DNA from: a virus
Reading direction: 5' to 3' (one strand)
Virus record (IMG/VR): IMGVR_UViG_3300003323_000103
Coordinates: 1 to 30,706 of that record
Length of the DNA: 30,706 bases
The notes below the pieces were generated by a model that saw only the letters and a list, made by a program, of their open reading frames with translations, was not told the origin of the DNA and did not search any database. How positions within the stretch are numbered: position 1 is the stretch's first letter; each line of letters opens with the position of its first letter. The position numbers were made by a program, and so were the translations under genes. Below are positions 24,143 through 26,162 of this stretch, one piece after another.

Positions 24143-24618
24143 GCATGCACACCTCCCCATGCCATCTCAAGCGGCGAGCGCGAGCTGCGCGCCTGCGCCA
24201 AGGTTTCATCAGCGAGCTCGGCAATACGAATCCTCTCTGCATGTTCCGCCTCCGCCGCGCGGATTCGGGCTCGTTCCTGCTGGCGCTTCAGCCTCCGATC
24301 AGCCACCAACTTCTTGCGCCGGGCCATCTCGCGCTGAACCCGGACTTCCTCCGGCAGTGGCGGCCGACCGATGCGCCCCGGAGACTTGACGGCGGCCGGG
24401 CGCCCCATAGCCTTCGCCTCACGCGCCCCGAGCCACGCCAGACCGTCGCTGGTGATCTGGTATGGAAGATCGAGCGACCGCATGCTCTTGTTCTTTCGTA
24501 GCACCGCCATGGCGCACATCACCTGAGGCATGGTCAGGCCGGACAAGTCGGCCATCTGGGGAACGGTCATTGGCTGGCCGCTGGCCAGCAGCCGCAGGAG
24601 GATCAGGCTGTGGCTCAT
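24139..24618 (-). CDS. Winged-helix protein with basic coiled tail
   Basis: The 159-residue protein has an N-terminal winged helix (ILLRLLASGQPMTVPQMADLSGLTMPQVMCAMAVLRKNKSMRSL...YQITSDGLAWL in order, residues 5-65). It is followed by an AT-hook-like GRPAAVKSPGRIGRPPLPEEV segment and a long R/E/A-rich helix. It is therefore probably a DNA-binding regulator or replication accessory. It is tied to both neighbours by ATGA overlaps. The RGRP-type motif at about 72-90 supports minor-groove contact. Confidence 0.7.
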   Translation of the reverse strand: MSHSLILLRLLASGQPMTVPQMADLSGLTMPQVMCAMAVLRKNKSMRSLDLPYQITSDGLAWLGAREAKAMGRPAAVKSPGRIGRPPLPEEVRVQREMARRKKLVADRRLKRQQERARIRAAEAEHAERIRIAELADETLAQARSSRSPLEMAWGGVHA

Positions 24619-25064
24619 GCTCCCTCTCCCAGCGCTTCACGGGCCATCGCCAGTTGCGTGCGCGTGATCCGGTCGCCGCCGGCATGGCGCGCCACGATGC
24701 GCCGCGCCCAGTCGAGGAAGTCCCCCGCCGGCCTAGTGCGCTCCAAGATCGGGCCGAGCTTCGCCAGCTCCGACGCGATGCGCTCCTTGCCCGCTGCGGA
24801 GTGCTCGATGCGCGGCTGCTCCTCTTCCGGCGCACGGCGGGCGATGTTCCGAAATTCCAGCACCGTCGGGGGCTTCTCTGGCGGCAGGTTCTGCAGCGCC
24901 CACGCGATGGACTTCGGGAAGCGTTCAAAGCCGGAGAGCTCGTGCGCCCAGTCCGACTTCACGGCGTTCAGATCGATGTCCTGCCAGCGGCGAAGGAACG
25001 ACTGCCCGTAGGTCAGCGTCAGCTTGTCAAAGATGCGGTCAACCCAAAGCGCGGGGAGCGACAT
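24615..25064 (-). CDS. Phage replication protein P-like helicase loader
   Basis: From the ATG at 25064 (MSLPALWVDRIFDKLTLTYGQSFLRRW) the product is 149 residues. The block 'DIDLNAVKSDWAHELSGFERFPKSIAWALQNLPPEKPPTVLEFRNIARRAP' is typical of the P-like proteins that follow DUF1376 initiators in betaproteobacterial phages. They are thought to recruit the host DnaB helicase to the phage origin. It overlaps the initiator gene by 26 bp. The role is known for lambda P; for this family it is inferred. Confidence 0.7.
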   Translation of the reverse strand: MSLPALWVDRIFDKLTLTYGQSFLRRWQDIDLNAVKSDWAHELSGFERFPKSIAWALQNLPPEKPPTVLEFRNIARRAPEEEQPRIEHSAAGKERIASELAKLGPILERTRPAGDFLDWARRIVARHAGGDRITRTQLAMAREALGEGA

Positions 25065-25854
25065 CGCGGGCCTCCATTTCGATGAAAAATTGAGATGCAG
25101 GAGCTGCGGCAGCAACCCCTGGCGCGGCCTGCTGCGTGCGTGACCGCTGCTCTGCGCGCCATGACGGCTCAGCGCCGGTCGGCGCGAGTTCGTGAGCCTT
25201 CAACCAGTCGGCCTGCAGCCCCTGAGAGCCACGGCCGACCCAGATTTCCAGGAATCGCTGCAGATCCAGCCGGGCCTTGTCAGCCTCGCGCCGAGCCTCG
25301 GCCAGCACGGTTTCGCTGACCGGCGCCCGCTTGGCCTTCCGGAGAGCCAGCCAGTCCCCCCAGACCTGCTCCGAGACTTCCTCAGGTCGAGGGATCGCGC
25401 GCTTTCGCGCGGACTCTTCTGAACGAAGTGAAGAAGAATCTGAGCTCTGAGGAGCTTTTGAGTTGGGTTCGGTCTGGGTTTCAGCTGGGTTACCTGGCGA
25501 AAACCCACTGGGTTTCTGCTGGGTTTCCTTTCGAGGCCTTCCGCCCTTCTTTCCGTTGGCGCGTGCGGCTTCAATGGCCGGCGCAGCATCCTGGATTTCT
25601 TCAGCTGCGCGGCTGTTGTGCCGCAGGCCGTCTTCTGCGATGGGAAAGAAGCGATCAGCCACGACGCGCACTGCTTCCTGCTCAAGCTTCGTCATGGCCC
25701 GGCAGATCCGGTAGAGCTCTTCCATTTCGGCAGGCAAACCCGACTCCGAGGTGTAGACCTCATCGAGCAAAAGCGTGTATGCGCCATGCTGCGCCAGCGT
25801 GAGCCGGGCAGTCTTGCGGCCGTAGTCGGCCGGATAGCGCTTGTAGAAATTCAG
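25039..25854 (-). CDS. DUF1376 replication initiator (O-like)
   Basis: The N-terminal ~100 residues match DUF1376 (YdaU-like): NFYKRYPADYGRKTARLTLAQHGAYTLLLDEVY, a winged-helix domain found in phage replication initiators. A K/R-rich NGKKGGRPRKE segment and a Q/P/S-rich linker follow, then a helical C-terminal domain (EVSEQVWGDWLALRKAKRA...). The linker-coding DNA (25461-25527) holds an iteron cluster, as lambda O does. No ATG exists near the expected start; CTG at 25854 (GGGAGG 4 nt upstream, CTGA overlap with the upstream stop) or TTG at 25866 must be used. CTG gives the family-like N-terminus (M)NFYKR. Confidence 0.8.
   Translation of the reverse strand: MNFYKRYPADYGRKTARLTLAQHGAYTLLLDEVYTSESGLPAEMEELYRICRAMTKLEQEAVRVVADRFFPIAEDGLRHNSRAAEEIQDAAPAIEAARANGKKGGRPRKETQQKPSGFSPGNPAETQTEPNSKAPQSSDSSSLRSEESARKRAIPRPEEVSEQVWGDWLALRKAKRAPVSETVLAEARREADKARLDLQRFLEIWVGRGSQGLQADWLKAHELAPTGAEPSWRAEQRSRTQQAAPGVAAAAPASQFFIEMEARDVAPRALG
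25461..25527. repeat. Iteron cluster, candidate phage replication origin
   Basis: TGGGTT occurs at 25464, 25475, 25486, 25509 and 25520, with steps of 11, 11, 23 and 11 bp, mostly as CTGGGTTTC. An inverted AAACCCA lies in the gap at 25501-25507. The 11-bp step puts the sites on one helix face and is not a multiple of three, so protein repeats do not explain it. The neighbouring 25415-25462 is AT-richer than the flanks. Confidence 0.6.
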
Positions 25855-26162
25855 ACCGCCTCCCAAACACTGCGCTTATCCCGACGCAATCCAGAATCAC
25901 GAACATGACCGGCAATGCGAAGAGGCTTGATCCGTGGCGAGACTGTGACGACCGTCAACCCTGTCCGTTCGGCGATCTCGTGAGTGGTTTGAGGGCCGCA
26001 CTCCTTCAGGCAGTTCAGCACGATGAGCGCCAAATGAGCCGTCGCGCCCTTAACCCCTGACGCGGCCTCATGCGAACTCGAAGGATCGGTGCTGCGGGCG
26101 TGAGGAAGAGCCGCCATGTCGTCCATGCCGTCGACCATGTCTTGATTGAGCGCTGGGGTCAC
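25851..26162 (-). CDS. Winged-helix (MarR-like) small DNA-binding protein
   Basis: From the GTG at 26162 the product is 103 residues. The C-terminal part reads AHLALIVLNCLKECGPQTTHEIAERTGLTVVTVSPRIKPLRIAGHVRDSGLRR in sequence, a winged helix-turn-helix common in phage genes just before replication initiators. The N-terminal TDPSSSHEAA motif is also typical. The start is set by GTGA overlap with the methyltransferase stop and GGAGG 4 nt upstream; an ATG 19 codons earlier would overlap the methyltransferase by 61 bp. Confidence 0.75.
   Translation of the reverse strand: MTPALNQDMVDGMDDMAALPHARSTDPSSSHEAASGVKGATAHLALIVLNCLKECGPQTTHEIAERTGLTVVTVSPRIKPLRIAGHVRDSGLRRDKRSVWEAV

What the first reader, a model, noticed from the sequence alone, without database searches (positions are those of the whole stretch)
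25461..25527. Helically phased iterons inside the replication initiator gene
Five TGGGTT sites are spaced 11, 11, 23 and 11 bp with an inverted copy in the gap. The step is not divisible by three, so the repeats fall in different codon frames and cannot come from a protein repeat. They lie in the part coding for the linker between the two initiator domains, exactly the arrangement of ori-lambda within O. The neighbouring 50 bp toward 25415 are AT-richer.
Basis: partly seen in the sequence, partly recalled or inferred. Interest (0 to 1): 0.6.

Follow-up and report, generated by a model that had tools for sequence, protein, structure and literature searches.

The report
Replication origin inside phage initiator gene
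A phage gene for a replication-starting protein very probably carries, in the stretch coding for its flexible middle, a row of 11-base DNA repeats that this same protein binds to start copying, and across many phages the repeat sequence changes together with a short protein motif next to it.

Summary
Five TGGGTT sites (25464, 25475, 25486, 25509, 25520; steps 11, 11, 23, 11) and an inverted copy at 25502-25507 lie in all three codon frames of a DUF1376 initiator gene (25866-25039, minus strand). They are not chance: 0 of 20,000 synonymous-codon shuffles gave five copies, and in a relative (69% protein identity) 0 of 36 repeat bases differ against 31% elsewhere.

The array encodes the disordered linker between a winged-helix N-domain and a helical C-domain. 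An unusually AT-rich 50 bp follows it, and the surroundings are lambda-like (CI, Cro-like, CII-like, initiator, P-like, NinB, NinG). Best reading: an initiator-bound origin inside the initiator gene. It works like ori-lambda but is built differently: 11-bp direct repeats, not 18-19-bp palindromic ones.

Most DUF1376 initiators carry 11-bp-phased linker repeats, and the repeat sequence follows a peptide motif just before the linker: GGRPxK with AACCCA (52/60 genes; other motifs 3/64), KAS-type with GTTCAA (22/26), SAxxRW with AATGC/AACGC. The AACCCA and AATGC pairings recur in other initiator families. I found no published description. Origin function and motif-repeat recognition remain untested.

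The parts
25039..25866 (-). DUF1376 (PF07120) replication initiator, O-like / 'primosomal protein' (TTG start as listed; true start uncertain)
   Evidence: Pfam DUF1376 1.9e-20; PHROG primosomal protein 8e-30, and residues 106-234 match 'replication initiation O-like' phrog_678 at 7e-15
25549..25851 (-). N-terminal winged-helix domain, residues about 6-106, ending in a long helix (85-106)
   Evidence: AlphaFold2 pLDDT mostly above 90; weak structural similarity to winged-helix domains including RepA_N initiators 4pt7/5kbj
25528..25545 (-). codons for GGRPRK (residues 108-113): peptide motif at the end of the last helix that goes with AACCCA-type repeats
   Evidence: class-iteron association
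25520..25525 (+). repeat core TGGGTT (AACCCA on the coding strand), copy nearest the N-domain
25509..25514 (+). repeat core TGGGTT
25502..25507 (-). inverted repeat core; with 25509-25514 it forms AACCCAGTGGGTT on the coding strand
   Evidence: a strict convergent pair occurs in 16 of 60 GRP-class genes
25486..25491 (+). repeat core TGGGTT
25475..25480 (+). repeat core TGGGTT
25464..25469 (+). repeat core TGGGTT, copy nearest the AT-rich stretch
25415..25463 (.). AT-richer stretch (43% GC in a 61% GC contig) on the C-domain side of the array; candidate unwinding element
   Evidence: the 50 bp after the array are poorer in GC than the gene in 42 of 45 GRP relatives, mean -10.7 points
25396..25411 (-). 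GC hairpin CGCGCGAAAGCGCGCG just beyond the AT-rich stretch; role unknown
   Evidence: single-strand fold of 25390-25470, z = -4.4
24615..25073 (-). P-like protein (probable helicase loader), next gene downstream
   Evidence: tblastn 9e-11 to a place annotated 'replication protein P' in MW202520, next to that phage's DUF1376 gene; no Pfam, NCBIfam or significant PHROG match

Best explanation
This is the origin of replication of a lambda-like phage, placed inside the gene of its own DUF1376 initiator. Winged-helix domains of the initiator bind the 11-bp repeats, probably one monomer per repeat in tandem and mostly in one orientation. The nucleoprotein array strains and opens the adjacent AT-richer 50 bp, and the C-terminal domain with the downstream P-like protein loads the host DnaB helicase. 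Specificity lies at least partly in the short basic motif at the end of the last N-domain helix (GGRPRK here), so motif and repeats are exchanged together as a cassette. Shown: the array, its constraint at DNA level, its position in the linker, and the motif-repeat association over many initiators. Inferred: binding, melting, helicase loading and origin activity.
For: Array present and improbable given the protein. In relative L002, 0 of 36 repeat bases differ against 239/774 elsewhere; third positions of identical codons 0/11 against 72/175. Linkers show excess self-match at 11, 22/23 and 34 bp over synonymous shuffles (52 GRP genes: lag 11 0.376 against 0.324, t = 11; KAS t = 7.9); z>3 at lag 11 in 31% of 138 DUF1376 genes against 2% of 101 downstream ORFs, and the same method finds the known iterons in lambda O at lags 23 and 44. 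AACCCA starts are spread over all codon phases (62/47/65). Class table: AACCCA (at least 2 copies) in 52/60 GRP, 2/38 SAxxRW, 1/26 KAS; GTTCAA-type in 22/26 KAS, 1/60 GRP; Fisher p = 1.7e-22 and 1.4e-16, without correction for shared ancestry. DNA-first scans: AATGC arrays sit in genes with SAxxRW in 60 of 66 loci with an ORF; AACCCA arrays in genes with GGR in 54 of 77. Natural swaps: L179 has the C-domain of L175-L180 but a GGRPRK motif and AACCC repeats; L004 and L005 share a C-domain but differ in motif and repeats. On a tree of the N-domain without the motif the class label changes at least 34 times, and in supported independent pairs AACCCA follows GRP in 4.3 of 5 on average, never the other way. 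Lambda-like neighbours. Model: two domains with a disordered linker.
Against: No binding, footprint or replication data. Phylogenetic support is limited: 5 supported independent pairs for GRP cannot reach p<0.05 by sign test (median p 0.125), 4 for SAxxRW and 3 for KAS. The motif codons directly adjoin the repeats, so linkage alone could carry both along. AACCCA arrays also occur in a few initiator-like genes without the motif, ending 'NYExY' (L302, L316, L318, L359). The KAS array pattern found nothing in 369 genomes, although those hold few DUF1376 genes. Structural matches are weak (best Z 5.8). P-likeness of the downstream protein rests on tblastn neighbours only.
Confidence: 0.82

Rival explanations
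1. The array is an operator: the initiator binds its own gene to repress its transcription or to limit copy number, and the origin lies elsewhere.
For: Iteron binding commonly also controls copy number in iteron plasmids (established knowledge). The array lies downstream of the start, so a roadblock is conceivable.
Against: Position in the linker after the DNA-binding domain is constant across families, with an AT-rich tract on the C-domain side. TRF at score 40 or more shows no other comparable short-unit cluster in the window. Known in-gene arrays of this type (lambda, SPP1 oriL) are origins (PMC5043065, PMC6316719).
Confidence: 0.1
2. The repeats are a tolerated minisatellite: the disordered linker accepts any sequence, and slippage spreads an 11-bp unit.
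For: The linker is disordered and varies in length between relatives.
Against: 11-bp steps shift frame unless three units are gained. Cores stay unchanged while spacers diverge (0/36 against 9/26 differences). The array here is interrupted and partly inverted rather than tandem, and TRF at score 40 does not report it. Other families keep the same core with the same motif.
Confidence: 0.03
3. The repeats follow from a selected peptide pattern (K/N-P, T-Q) in the linker, not from selection on DNA.
For: After synonymous shuffling part of the signal remains (AACCCA at least twice in 11.7 of 60 shuffled GRP genes).
Against: Observed 52 of 60; excess at lag 11 over shuffles; all three codon phases used. 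The same DNA unit gives different peptides by frame.
Confidence: 0.03
4. Binding site of another protein (host DnaA, a partition or recombination protein, or the helicase loader) rather than of the initiator.
For: Only sequence association is available.
Against: The repeat sequence follows the initiator's own motif, including where the C-domain is shared, which no host protein would predict.
Confidence: 0.02

Closest known systems
Phage lambda O / ori-lambda (and lambdoid relatives such as Stx phages)
   Same: Iterons in the middle of the initiator gene between the DNA-binding and helicase-loading parts, AT-rich tract on the C-terminal side, P gene next, CI-Cro-CII upstream, NinB and NinG downstream (PMC7466680). 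The C-part here matches an 'O-like' PHROG.
   Different: Lambda: four 18-bp iterons about 20-24 bp apart, nearly palindromic, bound by dimers (PMC5043065). Here 11-bp units with a 6-bp core, mostly direct, and an N-domain of the DUF1376 family.
SPP1 gp38 and oriL
   Same: Replisome organiser that binds direct repeats beside an AT-rich unwinding element inside its own gene (PMC6316719).
   Different: Sequence relatedness, unit length and motif coupling were not tested here.
RepA_N initiators (pSK41, pTZ2162, PLE RepA)
   Same: Winged-helix N-domain binding short iterons (8-9 bp inverted sub-repeats in pTZ2162/pSK41, PMC7145576); weak structural match to 4pt7 and 5kbj. From memory, some RepA_N plasmids also keep iterons inside rep.
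   Different: Semi-palindromic iterons around a poly-A tract; no detectable sequence relation.
E. coli Rac prophage YdaU (DUF1376) and oriJ
   Same: DUF1376 gene with phased TTCAAAC-type repeats in the linker, followed by the putative ATP-binding protein gene ydaV. Rac has an active but repressed origin, oriJ (PMC3945230).
   Different: KAS-class motif and repeat, not GRP. That oriJ maps in ydaU was not verified here.
PhoB-type pho boxes (from memory)
   Same: Winged-helix proteins binding 11-bp direct repeats head to tail; a precedent for the proposed geometry.
   Different: Transcription regulator; no relation claimed.

Membership tests
DUF1376 (PF07120) initiators | Pfam DUF1376 domain above the gathering score | tested here: met
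   73.5 bits against a cut-off of 30.1
Lambda-type origin inside the initiator gene | Conserved iteron-like repeats within the initiator's coding region, between its two domains | tested here: met
   Repeats, DNA-level constraint and linker position
Lambda-type origin inside the initiator gene | The initiator binds these repeats | not testable with these tools
   only indirect support from the motif-repeat pairing
Lambda-type origin inside the initiator gene | AT-rich unwinding tract next to the iterons on the C-terminal side | tested here: met
   25415-25463 is 43% GC; the 50 bp 25415-25464 are at the 1st percentile; unwinding itself not tested
Lambda-type origin inside the initiator gene | 18-19-bp near-palindromic iterons about 20-24 bp apart | tested here: not met
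   11-bp direct units with one inverted copy against lambda
Lambda-type origin inside the initiator gene | Initiation of replication at the site | not testable with these tools
   needs plasmid or marker-frequency assay
Lambda O family (protein) | Sequence relation to O-like initiators | tested here: inconclusive
   phrog_678 'O-like' matches residues 106-234 only (7e-15); the N-domain is DUF1376
RepA_N | RepA_N domain | tested here: inconclusive
   no Pfam match; weak structural similarity (Z 4.2-4.4)
Lambda P-like helicase loader (downstream gene) | Match to a P family | tested here: inconclusive
   no Pfam/NCBIfam match and no significant PHROG; tblastn to one 'replication protein P' place

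The most novel reading that the evidence does not exclude
Several families of phage replication initiators use one modular recognition cassette: a short motif at the end of the last winged-helix-domain helix (GGRPxK, SAxxRW, KASxxxR and further variants such as KGAxxRW or ANRIK) reads a matching 11-bp repeat encoded in the DNA just after it. The protein and its binding site share one stretch of gene and can be swapped as a unit, which would make origin specificity readable and predictable from sequence.
Probability: 0.55. Interest if true: 0.78.

Novelty: new variant of a known kind. Interest (0 to 1): 0.62.

Why it matters
DUF1376 is annotated as a domain of unknown function. This gives it a likely job (origin recognition), gives the phages that carry it a predicted origin at base resolution, and offers a table of motif-repeat pairs that can be tested by simple gel shifts. 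Origin specificity of unfamiliar phages and prophages could then be read from sequence, including compatibility between coexisting prophages. It also explains odd peptide strings such as NANAMQTQCEG: they are three-frame translations of an 11-bp DNA repeat.

Tried and rejected
Counting TGGGTT over the window shows no excess; the signal is local. TRF at score 40 misses the array. The 1-kb GC-skew table has no clear switch at the array; cumulative skew is low around 25-27 kb but reaches its minimum at the contig end, so it is uninformative. The first genome-contig scan with the single protein found nothing; the alignment query worked. PDB sequence searches gave no convincing relative. The pattern scan for KAS arrays in 369 genomes gave no match. 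The GC hairpin after the array is only mildly enriched in relatives (10/59 against 4.6% in shuffles, GRP), so it is not part of the main claim. A literature search for DUF1376 found five passing mentions and no function in title or abstract; searches for in-gene phage iterons found lambda, Stx phages and SPP1; none that I read described DUF1376 or a motif-repeat pairing, but subscription journals are mostly missing from that library. One class regex misplaced two KGARW-like genes (L577, L605) in GRP, so 52/60 is slightly conservative.

Full report
OBSERVATION. On the coding (minus) strand the row reads AAACCCAGCAG / AAACCCAGTGG / GTTTTCGCCAG / GTAACCCAGCTG / AAACCCAGACC / GAACCCAACTC: six units of about 11 bp, the third degenerate and partly inverted. 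The gene is a DUF1376 protein. Shuffling synonymous codons while keeping the protein fixed gave five copies in 67 bp in 0 of 20,000 trials. Against the relative L002 (69% protein identity) no repeat base differs (0/36), 9 of 26 spacer bases do, and 239 of 774 elsewhere do; third positions of identical codons differ 0/11 inside and 72/175 outside. The constraint is on DNA.

ANATOMY. The AlphaFold2 model has a confident N-domain with a long last helix to residue 106, a low-confidence linker (about 107-150), and a helical C-domain. The repeats code for about residues 114-134. On the C-domain side follow 49 bp at 43% GC (61% for the contig) and a GC hairpin. The gene order CI - Cro-like - CII-like (weak) - methyltransferase - HTH protein - initiator - P-like - ... 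- NinB - ... - NinG is lambda-like. The C-part of the protein matches an O-like PHROG, the whole protein 'primosomal protein' PHROGs. The record is a 30.7-kb IMG/VR virus contig.

GENERALITY. I collected DUF1376 genes from viral contigs, species genomes and phage records. In 52 non-redundant genes with a GGR motif, the 150 bp after the motif match themselves at lag 11 in 37.6% of positions against 32.4% after synonymous shuffling (t = 11), with further excess at 22, 23 and 34; KAS genes behave alike. Over 138 representatives, 31% have z > 3 at lag 11 somewhere in the gene, centred on residues 98-121, against 2% of 101 downstream ORFs; the same procedure finds the known iterons of lambda O at lags 23 and 44. 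In GRP genes AACCCA sites are 11, 22/23, 33/34, 44/45 and 56/57 bp apart and start in all three codon phases (62/47/65). The unit is therefore about 11.3 bp; 'helically phased' is right only to first order.

MOTIF-REPEAT PAIRING. Genes fall into classes by the peptide that ends the last N-domain helix. In sets gathered by protein similarity alone, AACCCA (two or more copies) is in 52/60 GGR genes, 2/38 SAxxRW genes and 1/26 KAS genes; GTTCAA-type repeats are in 22/26 KAS genes and 1/60 GGR genes; SAxxRW genes are enriched in GCAATG and AACGCA (21 and 19 of 38, against 3.9 and 2.2 after shuffling). Fisher p values ignore shared ancestry. Scans that started from the DNA gave the same pairing: AATGC arrays lie in SAxxRW genes in 60 of 66 loci with an ORF, AACCCA arrays in GGR genes in 54 of 77, with four more of a GGSAR type. 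Close to a third of these motif-bearing genes (17 of 60 and 17 of 54) were not DUF1376 by my profile: one was identified as Lin1244_N (PF14297), another set is an unnamed family with a helix ending in NGxKGGRPK. Natural chimaeras agree: L179 shares its C-domain with KAS-class phages L175-L180 but has GGRPRK and AACCC repeats; L004 (SANARW, AATGC/AACGC) and L005 (GGRPK, AACCC) share a C-domain. On a tree of the N-domain with the motif left out, the class changes at least 34 times; in supported independent pairs the GRP and KAS repeats follow the class and never go the other way (the SAxxRW signature is noisier: 1.3 with, 0.1 against, of 4), but only 3-5 such pairs exist per class, too few for significance. 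Exceptions were read one by one: most carry degenerate or different repeats (AACCAAG, AACGCTCAGCG), two were misassigned, and six DUF1376 proteins without a recognisable motif lack arrays. A few AACCCA arrays sit in genes with neither motif, so the pairing is strong but not exclusive.

MECHANISM. Most likely the initiator binds its own gene at the repeats, one winged-helix domain per 11-bp unit, opens the AT-richer stretch and hands the helicase over through its C-domain and the P-like protein. The order N-domain, iterons, AT-rich tract, C-domain is that of ori-lambda (PMC5043065, PMC7466680). Binding, opening and loading are inferred by analogy; array, constraint, position and pairing are shown.

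COMPARISON AND NOVELTY. An origin inside an initiator gene is known (lambda, Stx phages, SPP1 oriL). What differs is the 11-bp unit and the coupling of repeat sequence to a short peptide motif across families. I found no description of either for DUF1376 in the open-access library, which is not proof of absence. A useful lead is E. coli Rac: ydaU is a DUF1376 gene with phased TTCAAAC repeats, and Rac has a working origin, oriJ; whether oriJ lies in ydaU was not verified. Verdict: new variant of a known kind.

Noticed in passing
Many DUF1376 loci, e.g. L005:3004-3729, L017:1489-2418, L496:1498-2148: A second, class-independent element often follows the 11-bp array: AACC[AT] units spaced 6-7 bp (TAACCAATAACCATAAACC, peptide ITNNHKP), in 25/60 GRP, 22/38 SAxxRW, 11/26 KAS genes. 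It is AT-rich and could be the unwinding or strand-binding element. Not present in the window.
   Followed up: partly
25396-25411 and relatives (e.g. L175-L180, CCCCCGCAAGCGGGGG): GC-rich hairpin between linker and C-domain, mildly enriched over synonymous shuffles in GRP genes (10/59 against 4.6%). Role unknown.
   Followed up: partly
L517:1501-2175 (also L344): Five near-perfect tandem ATGCCAACCCA units in a gene with a SAKKRW motif: a hybrid of the AATGC and AACCCA repeat types.
   Followed up: no
L289, L310, L335, L336, L346, L351: An initiator-like family (one member tested, no Pfam match; HWKTRMLVxLL...HQWDEYNxxLIAxWxNGxKGGRPK) carries AACCCA arrays after the same GGRPK motif.
   Followed up: partly
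L302, L316, L318, L359: Initiator-like genes with AACCCA arrays but no GGR motif; their DNA-binding part ends in NYExY(Q/H) instead. A possible further motif class.
   Followed up: no
L012:11120-11977 (E. coli K-12 ydaU, Rac prophage): Phased TTCAAAC-type repeats in the linker of ydaU; Rac's origin oriJ may lie here.
   Followed up: partly
L566 and other Burkholderiales-type loci; window 25410-25440: The strand coding SSLRSE (TTCTTCACTTCGTTCAGAAG) recurs after the linker in several otherwise different proteins; may be a DNA-level element.
   Followed up: no
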